DNA from: Chloroflexota bacterium
GTDB taxonomy: Bacteria; Chloroflexota; Anaerolineae; UBA1429
Reading direction: 5' to 3'
Assembly (NCBI GenBank): GCA_019873625.1
Contig: JAIOAW010000011.1
Coordinates: 1 to 64,000, forward strand
DNA: 64,000 nt
The translations under genes were made by a program, and so were the position numbers. Under the pieces are notes generated by a model. It did no database searches. It was given only the letters and a program-made list of their open reading frames with translations, and had not been told where the DNA came from. This document shows positions 1 to 15,408 of this stretch, in pieces; the stretch's first letter is position 1, and every line of letters begins with the position of its first letter.

Positions 1-269
1 ATACCCCTCAGGGCATCGGGTTTTTCTCACTCTGTTGACTGCGGTGGGGGCAATTATGGTCTCCGCGTGGAGGTGTCTTAATACCCCTCAGGGCATCGGG
101 TTTTTCTCACCCATATACAGACTGCCCCCAGGCGCGCGGATAGGGTCGCCTCCGTCTTAATACCCCTCAGGGCATCGGGTTTTTCTCACACTTCGCAACG
201 GCGGGCCGTGTGGCTTTCCGTATGGCAACGTGAGTCTTAATACCCCTCAGGGCATCGGGTTTTTCTCAC
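1..269 (-). CRISPR. CRISPR array, leader-proximal end (4 repeats, runs off left edge)
   Basis: Four near-identical 36-nt repeats are visible: 75-110, 154-189 and 234-269 complete, and 1-30 cut by the window edge. The plus-strand repeat starts GTCTTAATACCCCTCAGGGC and ends TTTTTCTCAC. Spacers are 31-74 (44 nt), 111-153 (43 nt) and 190-233 (44 nt), a length usual for type III systems. Read on the minus strand the repeat ends in ATTAAGAC, which resembles the 8-nt ATTGAAAC-type crRNA 5' handle. This, and the position next to cas2, indicates transcription on the minus strand with 234-269 as the leader-proximal repeat. No spacer visibly matches elsewhere in the window. Confidence 0.97.
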
Positions 270-480
270 CCCTTTGCGCCCATCGCCTTTTCCTCCCACC
301 GGCACCGCTAAAACTGCCTTTGTATCGCATCTTTCCTCCCACTAGGCCCCTTTGTTCGGCCTTCACCAGCCAACTGCTATCCCACTGTTTATATCTCTGC
401 GTATGACGCCTCAAAAAGGCCCATTTTTCGCCCCGAAAAAAGGTGTCCTACGCAAACCGCCCCTTGAGTTTATACTCACC
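270..480 (-). promoter_or_regulatory. CRISPR leader with candidate promoter
   Basis: This gene-free interval lies between the last repeat and the cas2 stop codon, where the leader is expected. On the minus strand it carries TTTTGA (411-416), a 17-nt spacer and TATAAA (388-393), so a transcript would enter the first repeat after a leader of about 110 nt. The sequence is richer in A/T runs than the flanking genes. A plus-strand ORF over this interval and cas1/cas2 is an antisense shadow. Promoter assignment is by eye. Confidence 0.65.
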
Positions 481-762
481 CTATACAACGAGCAACCCCA
501 ACTCCTGCGTCGGCTCGCCTTCGCCCAACACCTCGCGCTGTGCGCAGCAGGCCGCACACAAGGAGTAGATGCGCACGCTCCCGCCCTCCTCCACCTCGCG
601 CGCCAACGCCTTCTTTATATACGCGAGTTGTTTCTCTGTCAACCACACTTCGAACACGCTGTACTGCACCCGCTGCCCGTACCCTTCCAGCAGGTGGGCA
701 ATGCGCAGGCGGTGCCGATCGCTCGGGATATCGTAACTGATGAGATAAAAGGCCCGCGCCAT
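481..762 (-). CDS. cas2: CRISPR-associated endonuclease Cas2
   Basis: Cas2 is the dimeric core of the Cas1-Cas2 spacer integrase. The 93-aa product has the family's usual length and a ferredoxin-like pattern beginning ARAFYLISYDIPSDRHR, with the conserved Asp of the YDI strand at residue 11 and a following basic helix. VQYSVFEVWL matches the second conserved strand, and the C-terminal half contains SVRIYSLC. The gene is last in the cas operon, 9 nt after cas1 and directly upstream of the leader, as expected for an adaptation module. ATG start. Confidence 0.95.
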   Translation of the reverse strand: MARAFYLISYDIPSDRHRLRIAHLLEGYGQRVQYSVFEVWLTEKQLAYIKKALAREVEEGGSVRIYSLCAACCAQREVLGEGEPTQELGLLVV

Positions 763-771
763 CGTATCGGC

Positions 772-1770
772 TCATCGGAACACCAAGGCCCGGTAATCCG
801 GCTGGCCCTCGCGCAAGCAGCGGGCCACCTCTTGCGCCTGCAAATGCACAAAGCGCCAAAGGGGCATCTGCTCCTGTGTGCGCGGGTGCTTCAAGGGCCG
901 CTTGAAGCGCTCATCGTAGGCCTGCACATAGCGCTTGATGGCCTCCCGTTCCATTACCAAAGGGCGTTCCCCCTCTTCGCCAGGGCGAAAATCCTCCGGG
1001 CGGATCACATCGTGATGGCATACGTGGAGCACGAGGCCTTCGATGACGCAACGGAACTCTTCGCACAGGTCGAGCGCAAGCGAAGGCCGGTTGTACTCAT
1101 CCTGATGGAGAAACCCGGCGTAGGGGTCCAGCCCCACGCCTTCCACGGCGCTTTCGGCCAGGCGGGTGAGGAAGGTATAGCCCAGCGAAAGGAGCACGTT
1201 GATGGCATCCGTCGGCGGGCGGCGCGTGCGCCGCTCAAAGTGCCACGGCTCGCGAAAAAGGAGCCGATAGGCGGCGAAATAGCGCGCCGTAGCGCTCCCC
1301 TCCACGCCGCGCAGGGAATGCAGCGTCTGCGTGCGCTTGGCGCGCGCTTCAAAGAGTTCGAGATCTTCCAGCGCCTCCTCCAACCCCTCGCTGCCTTGAG
1401 CGGCCTGGCGCCGTAAGAGGGTGTGCTGGTTACGGATTTTGCCGGCTACCATCCGCTGGGCCATCGCCAAGACAAAGGGCGGGTGCCCCTGCCAGAGGTA
1501 CTGCTGGCGCCGCAGGGCGATGTGCGGGGCCATTTGCCCCACCAGGCGGCCGTAGTAACGGCCATCCATCCCCAAGAAGACGAGCGGGATGCCCCGCGTG
1601 AGGAGGCGCTTCATCGCCGGCGTGGTGATGTGCACGTTCCCCAGGATCATCACGCGTTCCACTTGCCCCAAGGGGCACTCGGCGAGCACGGCCTCTTCTT
1701 TGGTGATGAGGAGCCGGTGATGATCCAGGCTGAGGCGCGCGCCCTGCTCTGTAACCCACACCTCGCCCAT
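772..1770 (-). CDS. cas1: CRISPR-associated endonuclease/integrase Cas1
   Basis: Cas1 is the metal-dependent integrase that inserts new spacers together with Cas2. The 332-aa protein starts MGEVWVTEQGARLSLDHHRL, typical of the N-terminal beta domain. The C-terminal helical domain carries the metal-site regions: RRPPTDAINVLLSLGYTFL follows the conserved Glu-containing stretch, His lies in GFLHQDEYNRPSLALDL, and acidic residues in DLCEEFR. The ATG follows the cas6 TAA with no gap, so the two genes are probably translationally coupled. Confidence 0.96.
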   Translation of the reverse strand: MGEVWVTEQGARLSLDHHRLLITKEEAVLAECPLGQVERVMILGNVHITTPAMKRLLTRGIPLVFLGMDGRYYGRLVGQMAPHIALRRQQYLWQGHPPFVLAMAQRMVAGKIRNQHTLLRRQAAQGSEGLEEALEDLELFEARAKRTQTLHSLRGVEGSATARYFAAYRLLFREPWHFERRTRRPPTDAINVLLSLGYTFLTRLAESAVEGVGLDPYAGFLHQDEYNRPSLALDLCEEFRCVIEGLVLHVCHHDVIRPEDFRPGEEGERPLVMEREAIKRYVQAYDERFKRPLKHPRTQEQMPLWRFVHLQAQEVARCLREGQPDYRALVFR

Positions 1771-2595
1771 TTACGGCCTCTCCTCGGGCGCGGCCCAACG
1801 CGCCTGGCCCATACCCATCGTCGTGTGGGCGCCCACGCCGGCGTAAAAGGCATAGGCGGCCAAGAGCGAAAGCACCCGTCCCCAATAGCGGTCGGAGTCC
1901 AGCCGGGCGAAGGTTACCTGGCCTGTGAACCCAATCTGCACGCCGGCTTCGTGCGCCTCCCAGGGGCGGCTGCGCAGGCGATATTGCGAAAGGGCCACCC
2001 TCTCGGCGGCATAGCGCGGCACCTCGGCGCTCACGGCCACGGGGGCGAAGGCCTGCCACCGCTGCAATAGGCTCCCGAACACCAGGTGCGGCAAGGGCAA
2101 GGGGATGTTCACCCCCTGGCTGCGAAAGGCCGTGGGGCTGGCGAAGGTCAGCCGCAACCGCCGAGGCGCGGGCGCCTCTGGCCCTAGGCGCTCCTCCACG
2201 AGCGCCCGGTAGGAGCACTTTCCCGCCCAAGGGTGCTCGGCGCCATCCAGCGTGGCCTGCACCACGCGCAGGCTGGCCCCGTCGAGTTCCACCTGCTCCG
2301 GCGGATCGTTCGCCAGGGCGCACAGGTGGGCGCTGAGTTCCGCCGTGAGGCCGGTGTAGCGCAACCAGGCCGTCTCGCCAGGCTCCAGCGTGAGGGTCTG
2401 CTCGCGCCCATGGCCGCCCACGAGCGCCGAACAGGTAAAGGGGCGCGGGCCGGGGGCGTTATGCAGGGCCTCCGCAAGGGCGGCATCTCGCCGTTGCACC
2501 AGCCGCAAAAAGAGGGCGTGGCTGGCGCGCCCTAGGTAGCGGTTCAGCCTCACGGTGTGCGGCGCCTCCAAGGTGATGACCAGGCTCGTGAGCAT
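1771..2595 (-). CDS. cas6: CRISPR pre-crRNA endoribonuclease Cas6
   Basis: Cas6 cuts the repeat RNA to release crRNAs with the 8-nt 5' handle used by type III complexes. The 274-aa product ends in the glycine-rich loop GVGAHTTMGMGQAR, the hallmark of Cas6 RAMP folds. The central EAGVQIGFTGQVTF also fits the second ferredoxin-like domain, and a His in the N-terminal domain (HALFLRLVQRRD) lies where the general base is often found. It sits between csx15 and cas1 on the operon strand. Assignment of the catalytic His is inference. Confidence 0.93.
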   Translation of the reverse strand: MLTSLVITLEAPHTVRLNRYLGRASHALFLRLVQRRDAALAEALHNAPGPRPFTCSALVGGHGREQTLTLEPGETAWLRYTGLTAELSAHLCALANDPPEQVELDGASLRVVQATLDGAEHPWAGKCSYRALVEERLGPEAPAPRRLRLTFASPTAFRSQGVNIPLPLPHLVFGSLLQRWQAFAPVAVSAEVPRYAAERVALSQYRLRSRPWEAHEAGVQIGFTGQVTFARLDSDRYWGRVLSLLAAYAFYAGVGAHTTMGMGQARWAAPEERP

Positions 2596-2609: not shown

Positions 2610-2990
2610 TTAGCGACGTCCACGCGCCGCATCGCGCTGGGCGGCGAGATCGAGGATTTCGGCCACCTCAAAACGCGGCGGCAGGCAGTTGGCCTTAGGG
2701 CGCAGGCGCAGCACGGGCGGAAAGTAGCCCATCCGCCCGTGCAGTTCGGCCAAGAGGAGCGCCACGATGGCGTTCAACGTGGGCGGGTTGATGAGGATCG
2801 GCTCGCCCTGCCACTGGCGCGGCGTCAGGCCCACGGCATCCACCAGGGCCACCACTTGCGGCCCAAACGGCTCTGCCGGGTCGAACTGGGCGGGGCACTC
2901 GATGACCCTCGTCACCGGCGCCCCGAGGAGGGCCTCCAGTTCGCGGAGGTTTTCAGGCGTGAGCGGATGGCCAAAGTTGATGAGGATCAT
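2610..2990 (-). CDS. csx15: Csx15-like CRISPR accessory protein
   Basis: This small 126-aa protein starts MILINFGHPLTPENLRELE and contains ILINPPTLNAIVALLLAELHGRMGYFPPVLRLRP, a signature I associate with the Csx15 family found only in type III CRISPR loci. Such small Rossmann-type proteins (Csx15, Csx16, Csx20) are thought to bind or degrade cyclic oligoadenylates. The start used is the ATG at 2988-2990, which overlaps the csx1 stop as ATGA. A longer frame to 3056 would add 22 residues of low-complexity sequence over csx1. Its role here, damping the signal read by Csx1, is inference. Confidence 0.75.
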   Translation of the reverse strand: MILINFGHPLTPENLRELEALLGAPVTRVIECPAQFDPAEPFGPQVVALVDAVGLTPRQWQGEPILINPPTLNAIVALLLAELHGRMGYFPPVLRLRPKANCLPPRFEVAEILDLAAQRDAARGRR

Positions 2991-4246
2991 CGCGGCTCCG
3001 TGGGTGTTAGGGTATGTTCGCCGGGCAAGGGCAGGCCTTCGATGGTCTGGAGGCACGACTGCAAGGCTTCGATGAGCGCCTCGGCCGGCCGGTGGCCCCG
3101 GCGCATCCCGGCGTGGTCGAGGTCATTGCGGCCGTCGGTAATTTGCCCCCAAAGGACGCCGAGGGTTTCTGAGCAGGGCACCTCGTCAGAAGAGGCCCGC
3201 ACCCCTTTCTTGGCCAGGGCGAGCAGGCGCCCTAACAGGTCTTCCGCCTCGGAGCGCGCACTTTCTTGGCGGAGATCGCCCTCTCCCCGCCAAGCGGCCA
3301 CCCAAGAGACGAGCCACTCTCGCGCGAGCGTGGCTGCCTGGATGTAATGCTGATGCTCCAGATACCAGCGGATGAGCCGGCGCTGGCGGGCCAAATTCGC
3401 CGCCAGGTTTTCGGGCGCCTCTGGGTTCGGCAGGGCGAATTGGACAAAGGCGCTTTTGACCTGCTGAGCGACCTCGGCAAAGGGCCGCAACTTGGCCGGG
3501 TAGGCCTCCTCGGCCAAGTCGAAGCGGCGGGCCAATTCCCCCGAAATGCGCATCATATCATATACGCGAACCAACAGGAGCGCGAGCGACATCTCATCCA
3601 GTTTTTTGGCCAAGGGGCCGAGGCGCCGGCCCAGGTCGCGCAGGGCGGGGTCCTGCCGTTGCAGCGGCCCCGGCGGGTTGGCCTGCCGCAGGAGGGCCGC
3701 CAGGTCGCGCGCATCGCCCAGGCGGGCAAAGCGGTCGGCCGCCACGGCCCATTCCAAGAGCACAAACATCGGCTTGAGGTCGAACATCGGCACGCGCGGC
3801 GGTGAGGCGCTCGCATCGCGCGCCTCATAGGCCCCGTAGAGGATGTGCTCCACCTCCACGCGGCGCGCTGCCCGCAAGAAGCAGACGGCCATCAAGACGA
3901 CCATCGGCAAACTGCGAAAGCCGTGGGTTACATCCAAGGCGAGGCGTTCCCCCGGCCCGATGGCCTCCGCCACCAGGCCAAAGAGGCGCCACAGTTCGTT
4001 CTCATTTTGCCCGGAGGGGATTTCGATCACCCTCACCGGGGCGACGCCCTCCACCGCCGCGCACAGGGGGGAAAGGTGCGCGGCGGTGGCTTCGGGCGTA
4101 GCCAAAAGGAGAATCTCCTCTGGCTGCAAAAAGTGGGCGGTGGCGGCCGGCGCGTAGCGCGAGACGTATTCCCTCTCGCCCTCCGTGGCCCATACATAGG
4201 CCACCTCGGAATAAGGCGTCGTGCCGATGACGGTGAGCAGTTTCAT
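2987..4246 (-). CDS. csx1: Csx1-type CARF-HEPN ribonuclease (DxTHG family)
   Basis: This 419-aa protein is a predicted cyclic-oligoadenylate-activated RNase. The N-terminal half is a CARF Rossmann domain: MKLLTVIGTTPYSEVAY at the start and LALDVTHGFRSLP with the DxTHG motif at residues 105-109. The C-terminal half is helical and ends in a HEPN active site, RNDLDH, with Arg373 and His378 (R-x4-H). It overlaps csm5 and csx15 by ATGA junctions at both ends, so it is embedded in the effector operon. When Cas10 makes cyclic oligoadenylate, CARF binding should switch on non-specific RNA cleavage by HEPN. It may be annotated under TIGR02221/Csx2; the domain logic is the same. Confidence 0.9.
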   Translation of the reverse strand: MKLLTVIGTTPYSEVAYVWATEGEREYVSRYAPAATAHFLQPEEILLLATPEATAAHLSPLCAAVEGVAPVRVIEIPSGQNENELWRLFGLVAEAIGPGERLALDVTHGFRSLPMVVLMAVCFLRAARRVEVEHILYGAYEARDASASPPRVPMFDLKPMFVLLEWAVAADRFARLGDARDLAALLRQANPPGPLQRQDPALRDLGRRLGPLAKKLDEMSLALLLVRVYDMMRISGELARRFDLAEEAYPAKLRPFAEVAQQVKSAFVQFALPNPEAPENLAANLARQRRLIRWYLEHQHYIQAATLAREWLVSWVAAWRGEGDLRQESARSEAEDLLGRLLALAKKGVRASSDEVPCSETLGVLWGQITDGRNDLDHAGMRRGHRPAEALIEALQSCLQTIEGLPLPGEHTLTPTEPR

Positions 4247-5328
4247 CCTTCCCTCCGCACAAAGGTCAACTTGACCCAGCCAAAGGGCGCGGAGGGGGAT
4301 TCATCTTGCCCCATGGCCATACGCCGCGTGGCCGGGAAGGGCGCCTGCGGGTCTCTCCGGCCGCGGCCCAGCCGGTAGCGGCGTAGGATCTCCGCCCACA
4401 AGGCGGGGTCCTTTTGCAAAGTGGCGCCGAGGGTTTTGCTATCCCACCCGCCGGCCCAGCCGATTTGCAGGAAGCATTCGTTCGGCTCCTTCGGGTTCAT
4501 CATACCATGGCAAAACTGTGCCAAGCGCGGCAGGTTGCGCTGCTCGTACCACTTTAAGGTGGCCTGCAAGCGCCCCTGAGAGAACCGCTGCACGATGCCC
4601 GGGAGGTCCTCGAGGAGGGCCTGACCCTTTAGCCGCAAACCGTGATGCGCGGCCCACTCGCCAAAGAGCGCCGTATCCACTTTCAGGCGCAGGTGAAAGG
4701 CCGTGCGTGGGCGGATGGCCTCCACCTTGATGGGCGCGCCCTGCTGCGTACGCCCGCCGATGACCTGGGCGTTGGCGAGCATCAGGGCCTCCGCGCCCAG
4801 AGGGGCGCTATCCCCCACCTGGAGGGCGCGCAGGAGGTCATGGTTGGGGTCGGCGCCTAGAAACTTTTGTTCGATGCGCAAGGCCGCCCGTTTGGGGTTT
4901 TCCCCGAGATCCCCAGCCGCAATGCGCTCTCCACCTCTCCGCACCGCCTCCCACAAGAGGGCCGTGCGCAGCGCCCCTTTGAGCGAGGAGCCGGGCAGAT
5001 AGGGGCGGTGCCAGGCGTCTTTGATCTGCTCCTGAAGTTGGGCGCCCGCCTCTTGAGAGCGCGGCTCCCCGCGCAAGACGTAGTGAAACAGCGGGCTGCC
5101 CTCGACGTAATCCTGCGGGCGCAGGAGTCTCGCCGGCGGCACCATAGAAAGGCGTTTGATCGTTTGCTCGTCGGTGCCCCTTTCTTCAAAGAACACGTCC
5201 AGGTTCAGGCGCCAGGTGCGGCCGTCATACACGGCGTAATCATAGTCTTTGAGCAAAACCTCGCCCGAGCCGATGTGCAACGGCGAGTAGGTCTCTACCG
5301 TGACATCGTACAGGATGTACTCAGCCAT
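4243..5328 (-). CDS. csm5: Type III-A effector subunit Csm5
   Basis: Csm5 is the RAMP subunit that caps the 3' crRNA end of the Csm complex. The 361-aa protein starts MAEYILYDVTVETYSPLHIGSGE, and carries the RAMP glycine-rich segment YLPGSSLKGALRTALL, followed by a long helical region and a second conserved block near LPRLAQFCHGM. The ATG at 5326-5328 is chosen because it overlaps the csm4 stop by 8 nt and begins the conserved strand. A frame open to 5442 adds 38 non-conserved residues inside csm4. Confidence 0.93.
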   Translation of the reverse strand: MAEYILYDVTVETYSPLHIGSGEVLLKDYDYAVYDGRTWRLNLDVFFEERGTDEQTIKRLSMVPPARLLRPQDYVEGSPLFHYVLRGEPRSQEAGAQLQEQIKDAWHRPYLPGSSLKGALRTALLWEAVRRGGERIAAGDLGENPKRAALRIEQKFLGADPNHDLLRALQVGDSAPLGAEALMLANAQVIGGRTQQGAPIKVEAIRPRTAFHLRLKVDTALFGEWAAHHGLRLKGQALLEDLPGIVQRFSQGRLQATLKWYEQRNLPRLAQFCHGMMNPKEPNECFLQIGWAGGWDSKTLGATLQKDPALWAEILRRYRLGRGRRDPQAPFPATRRMAMGQDESPSAPFGWVKLTFVRREG

Positions 5329-6439
5329 CGCGCACCTCCATCCGCACCCCCAGGGCCAACCCGTAGCGCCACACGGGGTGCGGGAACTCCGCCTGCTCGT
5401 ACCGTGGGCGCGCGTCCACAAGGTCGCCCATCGGCTGAGCAAGCGCTATGAGGACGCTCCCTTCCTCCACAAAGCGCACGCCCCGCCGCCGCTGGGCCGC
5501 CTGGCCCACCGACTGGAGATACCCGGCCACCCAGCCGAGGCGGTAGCGCACGGCTCCCCCTTGGAAGGCGGCCGGCACCTCTTCGGGGCGCGGGTGGTAG
5601 CGGCTCAGGAGCGCCACGGGCGCGCCCGGCGTGGGTTCGGGCCATTCCGCCTCACCTCCCACGGCCCAGGTGAACCCACCCAGGCCAGCGGCGCGGTCGC
5701 CGCCCAGGCCCTGGTCTCCGAGGAGCGTCAGCGCTCGCTCAAAGGCGCGGCGCCAGGTCAGGCCCGCATCCGCGGGGGCCTCCGGGCGGCGCCAGGCCAC
5801 CGGGAACCACAGCCCGCACCCCTGGGCGAACGAGACGCGCCCCGTGTAAAAGATGGCCGTGCCGCACTGGAGGCGATCCACCGTAACGCGCGGGGCGCGC
5901 CAAACCCGATAGACCTCCATATGGCGCAGGGCCTCCACCGCACGCGGGTGCTTGCCGCCCGACGGCCCCGAGACCCTCTGCAGTGCCTCCGGCAGGGCGG
6001 CTACCTCTTGGCGCGTCAACCAGAGCGCGCCGCCCTGCAAGAAGGCGCCCTCGCCCCCCTTCCCCTCGTCGAAAAGGGGCGCAAGCGGTTCGCCCCGCAA
6101 AATTCGCCGCCAGATCGCCTCCGAGATGAAGGCGATGTGCTTGAGGCGTTTGGGGTCGTTCGCCGAAAGGCCCAGGGTGGCCAGGTCTACTATGGGCAAA
6201 GGGTAAAAGCGCACGTTCCCCGCGTAGGGGAAGGCCGAACCGAGGAGGAGCGGCGCGTCGCCCGCCGCAAAATCCCGTTCCCAGGCCTCCGGCGGCGGCC
6301 CTGCCGGGGCCGAGGCGCTCACGAGCGCGGCGTACAGCGTATCGGAAGGCAGGGTGTGGCGAGATGCCTCCTGCTCCAGGCCCCGTTCGCCGAGGTGCAC
6401 CGCACCCTTGAACGCAAGATGGTAGTATGTTACACGCAT
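5321..6439 (-). CDS. csm4: Type III-A effector subunit Csm4
   Basis: Csm4 binds the 5' handle of the crRNA and contacts Cas10 at the foot of the Csm complex. The 372-aa product has the expected N-terminal HTLPSDTLYAALVSA segment and the glycine-rich LGGDRAAGLGGF loop of its second RAMP fold. Its length is slightly above the usual 300-350 aa. It lies 15 nt after csm3 in the canonical csm1-2-3-4-5 order. Confidence 0.93.
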   Translation of the reverse strand: MRVTYYHLAFKGAVHLGERGLEQEASRHTLPSDTLYAALVSASAPAGPPPEAWERDFAAGDAPLLLGSAFPYAGNVRFYPLPIVDLATLGLSANDPKRLKHIAFISEAIWRRILRGEPLAPLFDEGKGGEGAFLQGGALWLTRQEVAALPEALQRVSGPSGGKHPRAVEALRHMEVYRVWRAPRVTVDRLQCGTAIFYTGRVSFAQGCGLWFPVAWRRPEAPADAGLTWRRAFERALTLLGDQGLGGDRAAGLGGFTWAVGGEAEWPEPTPGAPVALLSRYHPRPEEVPAAFQGGAVRYRLGWVAGYLQSVGQAAQRRRGVRFVEEGSVLIALAQPMGDLVDARPRYEQAEFPHPVWRYGLALGVRMEVRDG

Positions 6440-6454: not shown

Positions 6455-7261
6455 CTATTGGGCAAGGCCAAGGCGCCGGCGGATGGTCTTCAAGATCTTT
6501 TCTTTTTCGGCCTCCAATGCGGCCAACGAATCAAAGGGGCCAGCGATCCATTCCGGCTCGGCGGTGTACGGCTCGGCCACCTTCAGGCCGATGCGCACGT
6601 TCTCCACGCGCACCTGGCCCGACCCGCGCGACCCCAGCCCGCCCAGGTAGTCATCCTCAAGGAGTTTCAGGCCCGTAAAGACCACATCGAGGAATTGGAC
6701 ATCCTGTTGGGGGTCGCAGGTATCCCCAGAGTAGATGCTGTAGACCATCTCGGCCGGCCCAAAGATGGCCCCCGCCGGCACGCGCTCGAACTGGCGCGGG
6801 TTAGCCACGGAGGTGACGCGGTCAATGGCCACCTCCGTCTTGACCTCGGTAAAGGGCAGGTCGGTATGCGCATCCCTCAACTGGCGAACGCTTTCTGAGG
6901 TAAGGGGCACGTCCCGCACGATGAGGCGCGTGGGGGTGTTGAATTTTACCTCGGCAGGGACGCCATAGGTGCGGCACACCTCACATATCGCATAGTCCTC
7001 TTCTCTCTTGCACGTATGGATCTTCGCCTGGCCGATGGGCTGATTTTGCGGCAGCCCTCGGTATTTCTCCGTAAGGGAACGCATCTTGCCGCGCAAGGAG
7101 GAACCGGGGATGTAAGGCTGATTGGTCAGTTTATCGCGGATGACCGTGCGATCTACCCCGCCGATCTCCACGCCGACATCGGAACCGCCAATTGCCAACC
7201 CGCTCAAGGCCTTGAGCGAAAACTCAAAGAACACGCGCCCGATGAGTTTGATCTCTGCCAT
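6455..7261 (-). CDS. csm3: Type III-A backbone RNase subunit Csm3
   Basis: Csm3 forms the helical backbone of the complex and cuts target RNA every 6 nt. The 268-aa protein shows the RAMP motif IPGSSLRGKMR, the DYLGGLGSRGSGQV glycine-rich loop near the C terminus, and IGGSDVGVEIGGVD. The Asp at residue 37 aligns with the catalytic Asp33 of characterised Csm3 proteins. Cleavage of target RNA by this complex is therefore expected to be intact. Confidence 0.96.
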   Translation of the reverse strand: MAEIKLIGRVFFEFSLKALSGLAIGGSDVGVEIGGVDRTVIRDKLTNQPYIPGSSLRGKMRSLTEKYRGLPQNQPIGQAKIHTCKREEDYAICEVCRTYGVPAEVKFNTPTRLIVRDVPLTSESVRQLRDAHTDLPFTEVKTEVAIDRVTSVANPRQFERVPAGAIFGPAEMVYSIYSGDTCDPQQDVQFLDVVFTGLKLLEDDYLGGLGSRGSGQVRVENVRIGLKVAEPYTAEPEWIAGPFDSLAALEAEKEKILKTIRRRLGLAQ

Positions 7262-7276: not shown

Positions 7277-7750
7277 TTACCGGCCGCCATAGGCGCGGTG
7301 ATAGGCGAGGATTGACTCAAAAAACTCGACGAACCGCTGAAAGTTATCCGTATTGCCTTGGACCAAGTCTACGGCGGGCTTGAGCACCTTGACCAAATCT
7401 TCGACGCCTCGCCCGCTTTCCTTCTTGGCGCGATAATCCATCTTGGGCTTGAGCAAAATCAAGCGACGATGAGCGCGTTGGGGGTTATGCTGCCAATCCG
7501 CCTCGATGGAGCGCACTTCGCCAAAAATCGCCCGGATTTGGCTGGTCGAAAGCGACTTGGCGGTGTGTGCTCCAATCCTTTCGGCCTCTTTGACCATCTC
7601 CTGAGCGCTGTTCGGGTCAGTGATGATCCTTTTTAGCAGATCATCGGGCGTCCCCTGAAAAGTTTCTCGTTGCTCCCGAGGGCCTCCCGCTGGCTGAGGG
7701 GCTGACCCTCGACCGCTTGCGCCAGGCCTCGTATTGCCATATCCCGTCAT
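7277..7750 (-). CDS. csm2: Type III-A small subunit Csm2
   Basis: Csm2 is the small helical subunit that lines the target RNA. This 157-aa protein has a low-complexity N-terminal tail (about residues 1-30, rich in Gly, Arg, Pro) and then an all-helical domain including TSQIRAIFGEVRSIEADW and a C-terminal segment ending ILAYHRAYGGR, typical of Csm2. It lies 4 nt after cas10 and 15 nt before csm3. An internal start past the tail is possible. Confidence 0.9.
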   Translation of the reverse strand: MTGYGNTRPGASGRGSAPQPAGGPREQRETFQGTPDDLLKRIITDPNSAQEMVKEAERIGAHTAKSLSTSQIRAIFGEVRSIEADWQHNPQRAHRRLILLKPKMDYRAKKESGRGVEDLVKVLKPAVDLVQGNTDNFQRFVEFFESILAYHRAYGGR

Positions 7751-10204: not shown

Positions 10205-10223
10205 CTATGCAAAAGGAGCATAG
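10205..10223. repeat. Short inverted repeat upstream of cas10
   Basis: CTATGC and GCATAG arms (10205-10210 and 10218-10223) with a 7-nt loop lie in the 108-bp gap between the CARF-LuxR gene and cas10. They could be an operator or weak hairpin controlling cas10 separately from the regulator. No further evidence. Confidence 0.35.
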
Positions 10224-10280
10224 CACCTTTTGATCCACTTTGCATCGGGAGGATATCCCAAATTCTATGGGAAGAGTTAC

Positions 10281-11141
10281 CTATATGGAGGCCGCATAGT
10301 GGTCGTGCAGCCAGGCGATAAGCGCGTGCCGATCCACCCGGCGGTCGTACCAGCCGAGGTAATCGGCCAGTTTCGCGTAAGCATTCGAAAGTTGGTTGGC
10401 CACCGTTTTGGCGCTGCGCCCCAGGCGCACGCCGATCTCCTCGTTCGTCAGCCCCTCGCGTACGAGGAGCGCCACGGCCTCCTCCTCGGCGCGCGTCAAG
10501 ACGTGCTCACAGAAAGAGGCCTTGTGCTGGCGTTCTGCGCGGCGCTGAAGTTCACCGCCCCGACGCAAGGCCTCCAGGGGATTCTCGTAGCGAAGGATGT
10601 CAGCCAAGAGCGCCGCATCGCTCGTCCACGGAATAAAGGGCACGGGCAAAAGGTGCACGGGATCGCCCGGCCGAAGGATGAGGCGGCGCTCAGCCAGGAA
10701 CTCTGGCGCCGAAACGAGGAGATACAGGCCATCTCGCCCGTCAAAGAGCAATTGGGCCACGGCCAGGCCATAAAGCGCCATAATTTTGCGCCCGCCGGCG
10801 GCGCAGAAATGGATCTCGGCGCCCTGTTGCTTGAGGTGTCGCACCAGGCTAAAAATGGCGTGAAAGGTCGCCTCGGCCTCCTCGGCCGTGGTGATATCGC
10901 TCAACGGGAGGCCCTCAGGGGTGGCCAGGGGTTCAAAGGTCAAGGGGTAGGCGTTCAGCGGGGGTTCGGCGAAGGCGTGCTTCAAATCTCCAAGGGCCCG
11001 TGCGATGGCCGGATCATACGGTGCCGTATGGATGACCCGCACCGCGCCGATGCGGACGCCCTTTTGGACCAAAAGTTGCAGCGCAAGCGTCACCACCTGG
11101 GGCTCGGCGCCTAGGGTGGCAAGAAAGACGGGCGAGAACAT
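10281..11141 (-). CDS. CARF-domain (NE0113-type) LuxR-HTH regulator
   Basis: The 286-aa protein has two parts. Residues 1-172 resemble the CRISPR-associated NE0113 family (ring-nuclease-like CARF): VFLATLGAEPQVVTLALQLL at the N terminus, DITTAEEAEATFHAIFSLVR, and HFCAAGGRKIMALYG with GGRK at 116-119. Residues 214-262 are a LuxR/GerE-type helix-turn-helix with LTNEEIGVRLGRSAKTVANQL. This predicts a transcription factor that binds, and perhaps degrades, cyclic oligoadenylate. The ATG has a strong GGAGG site and lies 24 nt after a small ORF. It is the first large gene of the cas transcript. Whether it activates or represses, and whether the ring-nuclease activity is retained, cannot be seen. Confidence 0.8.
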   Translation of the reverse strand: MFSPVFLATLGAEPQVVTLALQLLVQKGVRIGAVRVIHTAPYDPAIARALGDLKHAFAEPPLNAYPLTFEPLATPEGLPLSDITTAEEAEATFHAIFSLVRHLKQQGAEIHFCAAGGRKIMALYGLAVAQLLFDGRDGLYLLVSAPEFLAERRLILRPGDPVHLLPVPFIPWTSDAALLADILRYENPLEALRRGGELQRRAERQHKASFCEHVLTRAEEEAVALLVREGLTNEEIGVRLGRSAKTVANQLSNAYAKLADYLGWYDRRVDRHALIAWLHDHYAASI

Positions 11142-11354: not shown

Positions 11355-11526
11355 CCCTCTCCCATAGGGGTGGGAGAGGGAAGAATAGGAGCGCGAGGCG
11401 AGAGCCTCGCACGCGGGCCGGGAGGCCCGCGCTCCATAACAGACCCTACCGCAGGTTGGGAACCTACGGGAGGGCGCCACAATACCCCTCAGGGCTGCCG
11501 ACGCCAGGGCGCGTTGTAACGCGCCC
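11355..11526. repeat. Cluster of five hairpins
   Basis: Five inverted repeats follow one another: 11355-11364 with 11371-11380 (10 bp); GCGAGGC with GCCTCGC at 11393-11410; GCGGGCC with GGCCCGC at 11413-11430; an imperfect pair at 11449-11469; and GGGCGCGTT with AACGCGCCC at 11507-11526. The second and third sit inside an outer GGAGCGCG/CGCGCTCC pair (11388-11435), giving a cloverleaf shape. This looks like REP-type dispersed palindromic DNA. It lies between the divergent cas and beta-helix promoters and contains no gene. Confidence 0.75.
11481..11495 (-). repeat. 15-bp fragment identical to the CRISPR repeat
   Basis: AATACCCCTCAGGGC is identical to positions 6-20 of the CRISPR repeat as read on the plus strand, in the same orientation as in the array more than 11 kb away. 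Flanking bases do not match. A chance match of this length in 64 kb is very unlikely. It may be a relic of a lost array end or a recombination scar. Confidence 0.6.
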
Positions 11527-11631: not shown

Positions 11632-11649
11632 AAAATCAGTTCTGATTTT
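11632..11649. promoter_or_regulatory. Candidate operator palindrome
   Basis: AAAATCAG-TT-CTGATTTT is a perfect 18-bp dyad with a 2-bp centre, 12 bp upstream of the -35 box at 11662. Size and position fit a dimeric regulator's site. Confidence 0.45.
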
Positions 11650-11661
11650 ATGAAAAACCCC

Positions 11662-11690
11662 TTGACATTGCCATCATCTTCTGATATAAT
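11662..11690 (+). promoter_or_regulatory. Perfect consensus sigma-70 promoter
   Basis: TTGACA (11662-11667), a 17-nt spacer and TATAAT (11685-11690) match the housekeeping consensus at every position. It faces the beta-helix gene at 11917. The upstream dyad and phased motifs suggest that so strong a promoter is under control. Confidence 0.85.
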
Positions 11691-11696
11691 ACCTGC

Positions 11697-11916
11697 AGTA
11701 ATGCGCTGGGACATCGCCCTCCGAACTGGGTGTAGGGCGCGATGGACTGAAGGCCCCTACCCGGAGAGCGTGCAAGGCGCGCCCGGGCATATGGCCCGAT
11801 ATGGTTTCATCCTTTTGCATGATGAATGCGTGAAAGGAGGTGCCCCAGGGCAGCGAGGCCAGGGGAGAGCGTAGGGGGGATGGTTCGCCAAAACATTGCA
11901 GCAGGGAGGACGCACG
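11697..11916 (+). other. Long untranslated leader of the beta-helix gene
   Basis: About 220 nt separate the expected start of transcription from the ATG. The stretch is GC-rich with several possible local helices and holds no ORF with a good ribosome site. I compared it by eye with c-di-GMP, TPP and SAM riboswitch cores and did not recognise any. It may be a structured regulatory leader or simply untranslated sequence. Confidence 0.35.
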
Positions 11917-14900
11917 ATGAGTTCGAAAGTTCGGCTTCTGATGGCGCTGGCTTTGGTGGCCAGCATGGCGTTGAGCATGGCGCCGGCCTCTGGGGCCACT
12001 GGCAGCACGACGTACTATGTTTCGCCCAGCGGAAACGATGGGAATGACTGTCTCTCGCCCACAACGGCCTGCGCCACAATTAAAGCGGCGGTGAACAAGG
12101 CTTCTGCGGGGGATACGGTCATGGTGGCCGCGGGCACGTACACCCTCACCTCGGCGGATGGCGTGACCGTCAATAAGGAGAGCCTGACGATCACCGGGGA
12201 GGGCGCTAGCACCGTCCTTTCCGTTTCGGGCAGCGATTGGAACGTCTTCCAACTTCTCGCGAACGGTGCCACGCTCCAGAATCTCAAGATCGTCAAGACG
12301 GATAAGGCCGGCGTACACAACCTTGTGTGGATCAATGCGGATAACGTCACCGTGAAGCAGGTTACGTTCCTTGGGCAGTATGTGTTAGGAGACTCTGACG
12401 TAACCCGCGCTATGGTGATTTCCGGCGGGTGTGACGATCTCACGATCGAGGCAAACACGATCGAGGGCCTGCGCCAGCCTGCTTATATCACCGGCATCTC
12501 CACAGGCAACGTGAAGGATAACGTTGTGAAGGGCACCCGAGGTTGGGTGGTCGAGGGTGGAAATTTGACCTTTACAAATAACCGTGGTGAAGGGAACTAC
12601 CTCGACATCGCTATCCTTGCCCTGGTAGGCTCCGGCTACTACCCGGATATCGTCGCCATCAGCGAGGCGAATAACAACGCGGTGGTGGAGGATCAGCGCG
12701 TCTCTCCGGCCGTCCTTTCGGACGTGTTTGTGGATGCCTCGGCGCCTGCGGGCGGAGATGGCACGCCGACGAAACCCTATCAAACCATCGGGCCAGCCAT
12801 TGCGCGGGCCGTGGCGAGGGGTACCATCTATGTGGCTGCGGGCACCTACCAGGAGCAGGTGGTCGTCAATAAAGACCTCACCCTGGAGGGCGAAAGCGGC
12901 GCCACCATCCTAGCCCCGAATGCGCCGCAGGCTTTCCAATTCCCCGAGTCAAGCGCTTGGTGGGAGCCGGTGATCATCGCCTTCGGTGGCACAGCCACGG
13001 GTGGGAGCATCTCCGGGGATGGTAAGGTCTCGGTGAACATCTCCGGGTTCACGGTGGATGGCAATAACCGCGCGCCCACGAGCGGCAAGCGTTCGGCGGG
13101 CATCCTCTACCGCAACGCCGGGGGCGACATCGCACAGAACACTGTGAAAAATATGTATGTGGATGGCGCACAAACCTTCGGCATCATCGCCTACGGCGAC
13201 TCGGATGTGATCATCGAAGAGAACACCGTGAGCGGTTATGCCCGCGGCGGCATCACGGCCAACGGGGATATCGGTGACTTGCCTGACCCGCACGCCATCA
13301 TCCGCAACAACATCGTGACGGGGCCTGGGCTAGGTGTACCTGTTACCTGGGCGCCGAACGGCATCCAAATTGGCTGGGGCGCCACGGGCCAGATCCTCAC
13401 GAATACGGTGACGGCCAACGGCTGGCCGGGCACGAATTGGACCGGCTCTGGTATCATCATCGCCGGTTCGGATGACGTGCTCATCCAAGGGAACACTGTC
13501 ACCGGCAACGAGACGGCCATCAGCGTTGTGGGAGATAACTTTTTCGGCAGCGGGATGACGGCGGATGGCACTGTGATTCGCGGCAACTCCGTCACCGGTA
13601 ACACCTACGGCATTTCCTTGCAGGATCGCGTGTTGGATACCCTCATCGAGGGGAACACCATCGCAAGCCAGGAATACGATGGAATCGACATTTGTAACTT
13701 CCACAACCTGCCCCCAATGGGCACGGTGATCCTCAATAACAGCATCGCCGGCAATAACACGGCGAACGATTCGAGCTCCGGCGGCCTGTGGGTGGATGAT
13801 AGCATCACCACACCAAATTTCGTGAATGCCGAGCACAACTGGTGGGGCGCTGATTCCGGGCCCTATCACGCCATAGATAACTTGTCTGGCGGGGGAGATG
13901 CTATCATCGCCAATAGCGGTGTGGTGGACTTTGACCCGTGGATAAGCACCAAGCCGCTCTGGCAACTGGTGGAAGAGGCCGAGGAGGGCGCTACGATCAC
14001 CCTGGCTGACAACACCTACTACCCCGGCGGCGTCGTCATCAACAAGCCCGTGACGATCGTGGGCGGCGAGGGCACCGTCATCGGCCCAGGCTCGGATGGC
14101 ATCGTGGTGGCGGCGGATGACGTGGCCATCGAGAACGTCACCTTTGACGGCACGGGCGGCGAAACGGGCAATGTGGGCATCCGCGTGCTCGACGGGGTGC
14201 GCCGCCTGCGCATCGAGGGGTGCGAAATCAAGAACTGGCCCGATGACGGCATCCACTTTGAGGGAGCCATCGCCGACCTCAAGATGGTAGATAACTACAT
14301 CCACGATAATAGCGGCGACGGCGTCGAGTTCACCCAAGCGCCCGCGGATACGGTCAACATCTACGGGAACGCCTTCCGCTCAAACACGGGCTACGGCATC
14401 AACCTGGGGAGCGGCTCCGTGGTGGCCGAGTATAACGAGTGGGGCGATATCGCTGGGCCGACGGGCACGAATGGTGATGGCGTCGCTGGCAATGTAGACT
14501 ATGATCCGTGGGTGTTCGGCAAGGTCTATGCCGAGAACGCCTCCGGCCGCGAAGGCGAGACGGTGACGGTGCATATCAAGGCGGATGCGGCCAACCTTTA
14601 CGGCGCCCAACTGCAGGTGTCGTTCGACGAGACCGCACTCCAGGTCAAATCCATCACCACCTCGGGCACCGGCTACTTTGACGATGGCTCGAACGCGAAC
14701 CGCCAGTGCTCGGCCACACCCGATAACGACGCGGGCACGGTAACCTATTTCTGCTCGCGCATTGACGGCGACCCGGCCTACAGCGGCACGGGCGCCAAAC
14801 TCCTCTCCATCACCTTCGACGTGGTGGCGGATGTGGACGGCGTCCCGGTTGAGACGACCATCGATCTCGATGCGAGCTCCGTAGGTCTGGCGGCGCTGGG

Positions 14901-15408
14901 CGGCGTGAACATTTATGTGGATTCCGTGACGGATGCAATGGTCACCCTCTACGGCACCACGGATGTCAGCGGTCGCGTAGACCTGCAAGGCCGCACGAAC
15001 GACTCGGGCGCCGAGGTCACCTTCCCCGCTGGGCCGCTCTATGCCGGTGCGTCAGATACGACGGATTCTTGGGGCCGTTATGACTTTACCGGCGTGACGG
15101 ATGCCTCCTATGAGGTGACTATCGAAATGGCCCGCTACCTGGATGCGAAGGCCACGGTCGTCGTTGCGGGGGATGCCGATGACGCGATCGTTCTGAACAC
15201 GGCGCTCCTCCTGGGCGGCGACGTAAACGATGACGACCAGATCGCCATTGGCGACCTGACGAGCATCGCCGGCATCTTTGGCACCTCGCCGGTAAACCCG
15301 GCCACGACGGCGCAGGATATCAACTATGACGCCAAGGTGGATATCCTCGACCTCGTGCTCGCTGCCGGCAACTATGACCTGATCGAGTCTCCGTGGACGC
15401 CGCAATAA
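11917..15408 (+). CDS. Secreted right-handed beta-helix protein with cohesin-like and dockerin-like modules
   Basis: The 1163-aa product has a signal peptide (about 1-28, hydrophobic core LLMALALVASMALSM). Three parallel beta-helix modules follow, each opening with a segment like GDTVMVAAGTYT, TIYVAAGTYQEQVVV and ATITLADNTYY, and rich in NN and GN turns as in PbH1/DUF1565 proteins. Residues about 868-1010 are cohesin-like (LYGAQLQVSFDETALQVKSI), about 1012-1095 a CnaB/carboxypeptidase-regulatory-like fold, and about 1100-1155 a dockerin-like pair of calcium loops, DVNDDDQIAIGDL and DINYDAKVDILDL. The ATG at 11917 has GGGAGGA seven bases upstream. It heads a three-gene group of cohesin-like proteins. 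A role in binding or cutting polysaccharide at the cell surface is inference. Confidence 0.85.
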   Translation: MSSKVRLLMALALVASMALSMAPASGATGSTTYYVSPSGNDGNDCLSPTTACATIKAAVNKASAGDTVMVAAGTYTLTSADGVTVNKESLTITGEGASTVLSVSGSDWNVFQLLANGATLQNLKIVKTDKAGVHNLVWINADNVTVKQVTFLGQYVLGDSDVTRAMVISGGCDDLTIEANTIEGLRQPAYITGISTGNVKDNVVKGTRGWVVEGGNLTFTNNRGEGNYLDIAILALVGSGYYPDIVAISEANNNAVVEDQRVSPAVLSDVFVDASAPAGGDGTPTKPYQTIGPAIARAVARGTIYVAAGTYQEQVVVNKDLTLEGESGATILAPNAPQAFQFPESSAWWEPVIIAFGGTATGGSISGDGKVSVNISGFTVDGNNRAPTSGKRSAGILYRNAGGDIAQNTVKNMYVDGAQTFGIIAYGDSDVIIEENTVSGYARGGITANGDIGDLPDPHAIIRNNIVTGPGLGVPVTWAPNGIQIGWGATGQILTNTVTANGWPGTNWTGSGIIIAGSDDVLIQGNTVTGNETAISVVGDNFFGSGMTADGTVIRGNSVTGNTYGISLQDRVLDTLIEGNTIASQEYDGIDICNFHNLPPMGTVILNNSIAGNNTANDSSSGGLWVDDSITTPNFVNAEHNWWGADSGPYHAIDNLSGGGDAIIANSGVVDFDPWISTKPLWQLVEEAEEGATITLADNTYYPGGVVINKPVTIVGGEGTVIGPGSDGIVVAADDVAIENVTFDGTGGETGNVGIRVLDGVRRLRIEGCEIKNWPDDGIHFEGAIADLKMVDNYIHDNSGDGVEFTQAPADTVNIYGNAFRSNTGYGINLGSGSVVAEYNEWGDIAGPTGTNGDGVAGNVDYDPWVFGKVYAENASGREGETVTVHIKADAANLYGAQLQVSFDETALQVKSITTSGTGYFDDGSNANRQCSATPDNDAGTVTYFCSRIDGDPAYSGTGAKLLSITFDVVADVDGVPVETTIDLDASSVGLAALGGVNIYVDSVTDAMVTLYGTTDVSGRVDLQGRTNDSGAEVTFPAGPLYAGASDTTDSWGRYDFTGVTDASYEVTIEMARYLDAKATVVVAGDADDAIVLNTALLLGGDVNDDDQIAIGDLTSIAGIFGTSPVNPATTAQDINYDAKVDILDLVLAAGNYDLIESPWTPQ

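What the first reader, a model, noticed from the sequence alone, without database searches (positions are those of the whole stretch)
10281..11141. CARF (NE0113-type) domain fused to a LuxR helix-turn-helix at the head of a type III-A operon
The N-terminal 172 residues match the ring-nuclease-like NE0113 CARF family (GGRK at 116-119), and residues 214-262 form a LuxR-type DNA-binding domain. A cyclic-oligoadenylate-responsive transcription factor, possibly with a built-in off switch, would connect phage RNA recognition to gene expression. Most CARF regulators known (Csa3 type) use a winged helix, not LuxR.
Basis: partly seen in the sequence, partly recalled or inferred. Interest (0 to 1): 0.75.

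Follow-up and report, generated by a model that had tools for sequence, protein, structure and literature searches.

The report
CRISPR alarm-sensing gene switch with operator
This bacterium's type III CRISPR operon is preceded by a gene for a predicted regulator that joins a sensor for the CRISPR alarm molecule to a DNA-binding domain, and the DNA just behind that gene carries a conserved paired binding site at the promoter of the CRISPR genes, suggesting the alarm sets how much CRISPR machinery is made.

Summary
Confirmed: minus strand 11141-10281 encodes a 286-aa protein with an NE0113/CARF3 CARF domain (PF09623, 8.8e-28) and a LuxR/FixJ-type HTH (GerE above cut-off), first in a III-A locus (cas10, csm2-5, Csx1, Csx15, cas6, cas1, cas2, array). 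The fusion is not a one-off: 40 of 40 aligned relatives have both domains, in at least two phyla, and in all 21 loci holding csm2 the gene lies 19-246 bp upstream of cas10 on the same strand. The 'built-in off switch' is not supported: the catalytic motif-I Ser of Crn1 ring nucleases is absent in 99 of 99 HTH-bearing homologues, while cA4-binding residues (D82, R118) are kept. New: the DNA behind the regulator gene holds a conserved promoter with dyads beside the -35 (centre about -42.5, the classic LuxR-activator position): GGGN4CCCGCATGACN18TANNNT in the main csm branch, tandem TAGGAAN4TTCCTA + GGGAAN4TTCCC in the window's branch, including III-B cmr1 loci. Operator sequence changes with the recognition helix. 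Best reading: a cOA-sensing CARF-LuxR transcription factor controlling the type III effector operon. Ligand binding, DNA binding and direction of regulation remain untested.

The parts
10281..11141 (-). CARF-LuxR HTH regulator gene, 286 aa (CARF residues 4-175, linker helix 188-214, HTH 215-262, C-terminal helix 271-285)
10268..10283 (-). Distal dyad (box 1) TAGGTAACTCTTCCCA, beginning at the regulator's stop codon; 2 mismatches to TAGGAAN4TTCCTA
10247..10259 (-). Proximal dyad (box 2, degenerate in the window) GGGATATCCTCCC, starting 24 nt after box 1 as in L105 and L110; next to the -35
10217..10245 (-). Predicted cas10 promoter: -35 ATGCAA (10245-10240), 17-nt spacer, -10 TATGCT (10222-10217)
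   Evidence: same register in L105 and L110
7755..10193 (-). cas10/csm1 with HD and GGDD (cOA cyclase) motifs; a likelier start is the TTG at about 10172 behind GGGAG
7277..7750 (-). csm2
6455..7261 (-). csm3
5321..6439 (-). csm4
4243..5442 (-). csm5
2987..4246 (-). Csx1-type CARF2-HEPN effector (family known to be cA4-activated), HEPN RNDLDH at residue 373
2610..2993 (-). Csx15, proposed cOA sponge
1771..2595 (-). cas6
772..1770 (-). cas1
481..762 (-). cas2
1..276 (.). End of CRISPR array, 4 repeats at 79-80 nt spacing

Best explanation
The gene encodes a dimeric, cyclic-oligoadenylate-sensing transcription factor: an NE0113/CARF3 (Crn1-like but catalytically altered) CARF domain joined by a long helix to a LuxR/FixJ-type HTH. 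When the Csm complex sees foreign RNA, Cas10 makes cOA (most likely cA4, because the operon's effector is a Csx1-type CARF2-HEPN). cOA binding at the CARF dimer changes how the HTH pair engages dyad operators directly behind its own gene: a distal dyad at the regulator's stop codon and a proximal one centred about 42-43 bp upstream of the predicted cas10 start site, next to the -35. That geometry is the class-II activator position, so I favour activation of the cas10-csm operon, i.e. amplification of the defence during infection. Shown here: domains, conserved gene order, conserved promoter/operator, its uniqueness per genome, its change together with the recognition helix, loss of the ring-nuclease motif-I Ser. 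Inferred: dimerisation, that this protein binds those sites, that cA4 is the ligand, and the sign of the effect (the confidence covers a cOA-sensing regulator of this operon; activation alone about 0.45).
For: Domains and fold; 40/40 relatives have CARF+GerE. Conserved head position: in all 21 loci with csm2, cas10 follows at 19-246 bp, same strand. Operator, main csm branch: GGGN4CCCGCATGAC within 2 mismatches in 20 of 28 junctions against a shuffle mean of 0.11 (max 2), with TANNNT exactly 17 nt beyond the hexamer in 17; all 20 sites listed from the scan of 85 loci lie at the regulator-cas10 junction; whole-genome scans of 9 relatives give 0-mismatch hits only there, in 5 genomes. Window branch: TAGGAAN4TTCCTA within 3 mismatches in 12 of 18 junctions against 0.85 (max 4); full module in the window scores 24, reached by 0 of 300 shuffles (max 21), in the same register as L105 and L110; unique in the genome. 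Perfect 6-4-6 dyads: 17 of 65 junctions against 1.5 expected, upstream regions 4 of 65 against 1.7. Operator follows recognition helix: TVEQHL with GGGN4CCC, T(V/I)AN(Q/H)L with TAGGAAN4TTCCTA, TVN(T/S)HKT with TCAGCAN4TGCTGA. III-B loci with the tandem dyads have cmr1 next. Ligand residues: D82 and R118 align with Sso2081 D75 and R105, K119 with K106.
Against: No binding or expression data. The window's own proximal dyad is degenerate and its -35 (ATGCAA) is poor; it rests on register with relatives. Patterns were defined after looking at the sequences, so shuffle counts are descriptive; relatives are not independent. Several loci (L064 Rhodothermus, L066, L106, L113, L136, L140) show no such module. 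The window copy has lost W140, H141 and H155, near-invariant in the family, so its ligand handling may differ.
Confidence: 0.72

Rival explanations
1. It is a ring nuclease (Crn1-like) whose HTH only serves structure or auto-inhibition, as suggested for archaeal Sso1393/Sis0811 CARF-wHTH ring nucleases; it switches the alarm off and does not regulate genes.
For: CARF closest by profile to Sso2081/Crn1 and by fold also to Sis0455 and Sis0811; NCBI names the Rhodothermus homologue 'CRISPR-associated ring nuclease'; motif II GGRK intact; no other proven ring nuclease in the locus (Csx15 showed none, PMC12409355).
Against: Catalytic motif-I Ser is Q/E/K/R/N in 99 of 99 HTH-bearing homologues, but Ser in 8 of 15 HTH-less PF09623 proteins; HTH-less ones sit on the other side of one branch (support 77). 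Recognition helix is conserved and matched by dyads behind the gene. Ser11 is not critical in Sis0455 (PMC10018336), so residual cleavage is not excluded.
Confidence: 0.12
2. It is a repressor of the csm operon that cOA releases (or that cOA strengthens, giving negative feedback), acting at the same dyads. (A sub-case of the regulator reading with the opposite sign.)
For: Same operator evidence; a protein close to the -35 could hinder polymerase; LuxR-family regulators can repress (own knowledge).
Against: Proximal dyad is centred about -42.5, upstream of and not covering the -35/-10, with weak promoter hexamers, which suits activation better; sign not tested.
Confidence: 0.27
3. The dyads are bound by another regulator, and the CARF-HTH acts elsewhere.
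For: No binding data; the protein could have further targets, e.g. a second site in Bellilinea before a 109-aa protein.
Against: Operator sequence changes with the CARF-HTH recognition helix while its place and 24-nt geometry stay; sites are essentially confined to the junction.
Confidence: 0.1

Closest known systems
CARF3 / NE0113 family (PF09623; PADLOC CARF3--CARF PDLC01851)
   Same: Full-length match E 8.8e-82 over residues 4-283 of 286: this protein is a member; the C-terminal region is already inside that model.
   Different: The PADLOC name lists only CARF, NCBI names a homologue a ring nuclease, and the 2014 paper speaks of winged HTH; here the HTH is LuxR-type and an operator is proposed.
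Csa3 (CARF-wHTH transcription factors of archaeal type I-A)
   Same: CARF plus DNA-binding C-terminus, cA4-binding, no ring nuclease activity (PMC8844856, PMC8699464); fold hits 6wxq and 2wte.
   Different: LuxR-type HTH, no Csa3 motif 1 (G-F-D/N), bacterial type III loci, site at the effector operon promoter rather than adaptation genes.
Crn1 ring nucleases Sso2081/Sis0455 and the CARF-wHTH Sso1393/Sis0811
   Same: Closest CARF by sequence profile (E 3e-10) and close by fold; D75/R105/K106 equivalents kept.
   Different: Motif-I GTS replaced by GAE; 286 aa with LuxR HTH.
LuxR/FixJ/NarL regulators
   Same: HTH sequence and four-helix layout; dyad at about -42.5 is the class-II site known for LuxR (own knowledge).
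   Different: The sensor is a CARF, not an acyl-homoserine-lactone or receiver domain.

Membership tests
CARF3/NE0113 (PF09623) | Profile match above curated cut-off | tested here: met
   98 bits against 23
LuxR-type HTH (GerE PF00196) | Profile match above cut-off, tetrahelical HTH | tested here: met
   24.1 against 23.5 bits; 40/40 relatives match at E up to 0.1; model helices
Csa3 | Winged HTH and motif 1 G-F-(D/N) | tested here: not met
   LuxR-type HTH; motif 1 region is G11-A-E-P-Q
Crn1 ring nuclease | Motif I GxS/T | tested here: not met
   GAE in window; 0 of 99 HTH-bearing homologues
Crn1 ring nuclease | Motif II G-R-K | tested here: met
   G117 R118 K119
Crn1 ring nuclease | cOA cleavage | not testable with these tools
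   needs a biochemical assay
cOA-responsive transcription factor | cOA binding that changes DNA binding | not testable with these tools
   Binding residues conserved
Class-II (LuxR-type) activator | Dyad centred near -42.5 beside the -35 | tested here: met
   Relatives clear; window copy degenerate but in register; activation itself untested
Type III-A locus | csm1-csm5 with active Cas10 motifs | tested here: met

The most novel reading that the evidence does not exclude
A family-wide class of bacterial cOA-gated LuxR-type transcription factors that sit in front of type III-A and III-B effector operons and control them from tandem dyad promoters behind their own genes, with operator and recognition helix changing together: an amplifying loop from alarm signal to CRISPR expression, and a set of ready-made cA4-responsive switches with different DNA specificities.
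Probability: 0.5. Interest if true: 0.75.

Novelty: new variant of a known kind. Interest (0 to 1): 0.62.

Why it matters
Csa3 (archaeal, type I-A) was, per a 2022 review (PMC9704534), the only experimentally characterised non-nuclease CARF effector, a transcription regulator; whether type III systems tune their own expression through their alarm molecule is open. This work names a widespread bacterial regulator family, gives a precise operator to test at each locus, and says that automatic 'ring nuclease' names on its members are probably wrong.

Tried and rejected
Single-protein scans of genome contigs and viral contigs found no relatives; viral contigs with the alignment also none, so no phage copies seen. 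Palindromic motif search upstream of the regulator gene gave nothing convincing above shuffles, and the dyad count upstream was at background: no sign of autoregulation from that side. The perfect 18-bp palindrome at 11632-11649 is unique in the genome and unlike the operators, so it was not used. Rfam finds nothing in the window's first 20 kb or in six relatives' loci. The 2020 CARF classification paper (gkaa635/PMC7498327) is not held, so what it says on HTH in CARF3 could not be read. Dimer or ligand modelling was not possible with the tools.

Full report
Observation. The span 10281-11141 is a minus-strand ORF of 286 aa. Pfam gives Cas_NE0113 (PF09623) over residues 13-173 at E 8.8e-28 and, over 215-258, Sigma70_r4_2 and GerE above their cut-offs. 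NCBIfam gives sub-threshold Csx14 and NE0113 matches. PADLOC's CARF3--CARF model covers residues 4-283 at 8.8e-82. AlphaFold2 on an alignment of 40 relatives gives pLDDT 95. Foldseek against PDB finds Cad1-CARF, Sis0455, Sso2081, Csa3 and Sis0811. A profile of 40 relatives hits Sso2081 with the CARF part (3e-10) and FixJ/NarL/LuxR-type HTHs with the C-terminal part (4e-10).

Locus. Downstream on the same strand are cas10 (HD, GGDD), csm2, csm3, csm4, csm5, a CARF2-HEPN Csx1, Csx15, cas6, cas1 and cas2, then a CRISPR array. This is a complete type III-A system with a cA4-type effector. Per PMC12409355, extrinsic ring nucleases found with effectors occur only with cA4-dependent ones, and Csx15 lacks clear ring nuclease activity and may be a sponge.

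Relatives. Of 400 genomes of the phylum 60 have PF09623. A scan of genome contigs with an alignment gave 44 loci, mostly Chloroflexota but also KSB1, Abditibacteriales, Poribacteria, Latescibacterota, Bipolaricaulota and Deltaproteobacteria MAGs; Rhodothermus marinus plasmids carry it too, with the same regulator-csm1-csm2-csm3-csm4-csm5 order. All 40 aligned members match both PF09623 and GerE. In every locus where csm2 was found (21 distinct) the regulator gene is 19-246 bp upstream of cas10 on the same strand. In III-B loci it stands directly before cmr1. The fusion is therefore a standard architecture, foreseen in outline by PMC4012209, which predicted that NE0113-family proteins regulate transcription.

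Off switch. In Sso2081 motif I is G9-T10-S11 (Ser11 needed for cleavage), motif II G104-R105-K106, and D75 and R105 make the main binding contributions (PMC10018336). Aligned, the window has G11-A12-E13, D82, R118, K119. Across 99 HTH-bearing homologues position 13 is Q 44, E 33, K 18, R 3, N 1; across 15 HTH-less PF09623 proteins it is S 8, A 4, Y 2, H 1. The HTH-less proteins lie on one side of one branch (SH-aLRT 77). No HTH was found in nine of the HTH-less proteins by Pfam. The HTH branch keeps the binding residues and lacks the catalytic Ser: a sensor rather than a ring nuclease, though weak cleavage cannot be excluded. The window copy also lacks W140, H141 and H155, near-invariant elsewhere.

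Operator. Reading the gap between the regulator gene and cas10 in relatives showed a repeated block: TTAGGGGAAAACCCGC-ATGACA-N17-TACACT. Against dinucleotide shuffles, GGGN4CCCGCATGAC with up to 2 mismatches occurs in 20 of 28 junctions (null mean 0.11, max 2), and TANNNT follows exactly 17 nt after the hexamer in 17. All 20 sites listed in the scan of 85 loci are at this junction, same strand (up to 1 mismatch, or 2 with TANNNT in place; a few listed loci are second records of one genome). In whole genomes of 9 relatives exact hits occur only there; one extra 1-mismatch site precedes a 109-aa protein in Bellilinea. If the -35 hexamer starts at -35, the dyad is centred at about -42.5, the site of class-II activators such as LuxR (own knowledge).

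Window branch. The window and relatives with T(V/I)AN(Q/H)L recognition helices have instead two dyads 24 nt apart: TAGGAAN4TTCCTA near the stop codon and GGGAAN4TTCCC adjoining the -35 (12 of 18 junctions for box 1 within 3 mismatches against 0.85). Window: TAGGTAACTCTTCCCA (10283-10268), GGGATATCCTCCC (10259-10247), ATGCAA, 17 nt, TATGCT (10222-10217); module score 24 against a shuffle maximum of 21 in 300; same register as L105 (perfect dyads) and L110. The module is unique in the genome: other hits have 3 mismatches and are at control level. A third group (TVN(T/S)HKT helix) has TCAGCAN4TGCTGA at the same place. Without fixing any sequence, perfect 6-4-6 dyads occur in 17 of 65 downstream junctions (1.5 expected, max 5) and in 4 of 65 upstream regions (1.7 expected). 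Place and geometry stay while sequence changes with the recognition helix, which is what binding by the protein itself predicts. Caveats: the patterns were chosen after inspection, and the loci are related.

Mechanism. Cas10 makes cOA on target recognition; the CARF dimer binds it; the linker helix passes the change to the HTH pair; occupancy at the dyads changes cas10-csm (or cmr) transcription. Activation is favoured by the -42.5 position and the weak hexamers; repression is the main rival. None of the papers found describes a CARF-LuxR regulator or such an operator, but the main 2020 CARF survey could not be read, so novelty is claimed only for the LuxR assignment plus operator, not for the existence of the family.

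Noticed in passing
L070, L072, L073, L107, L108, L111, L129, L139, L067: leader between the conserved promoter and cas10: Predicted cas10 mRNA leaders often hold a hairpin with variable stem sequence and a loop carrying two GGGG(G)A runs: 9 of 16 leaders against a shuffle mean of 0.2 (max 2); no Rfam match. Possible cis-regulatory RNA; the window lacks it.
   Followed up: partly
11481-11495 (+): Solo copy of a 15-nt CRISPR-repeat core (AATACCCCTCAGGGC) upstream of the regulator gene, the only copy in the genome outside the arrays.
   Followed up: partly
11632-11649 and 11662-11690 (+): Perfect 18-bp palindrome AAAATCAGTTCTGATTTT, unique in the genome, just upstream of a perfect sigma-70 consensus promoter (12 of 12) for the divergent ORF 11896-15408.
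   Followed up: partly
L191:1501-1541 and 1603-1932: Bellilinea has a second copy of the operator-promoter (1 mismatch) about 60 nt before a 109-aa protein with no family match that looks like a small membrane protein; possible further target.
   Followed up: partly
L107:8142-10256: A Schlafen/AlbA plus NACHT (STAND-like) gene of 704 aa lies between cas10 and csm2; similar 2-kb gaps occur in L116, L119, L123, L129, L139, L144 (contents not checked).
   Followed up: partly
10281-11141 (-): The window's CARF has lost three residues near-invariant in the family: W140 (Y), H141 (L), H155 (I).
   Followed up: no
L045:1477-3060 (-): A 527-aa variant with about 220 extra N-terminal residues of unknown kind before the CARF and only a weak HTH.
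   Followed up: no
L083: In another branch the CARF-HTH gene is followed by a Card1-like nuclease gene.
   Followed up: no
L064 (Rhodothermus marinus pRMAR01): The same plasmid locus has both the CARF-HTH before csm1 and a separate HTH-less PF09623 protein with GIS in motif I annotated Csm6, consistent with sensor and ring nuclease being split.
   Followed up: partly
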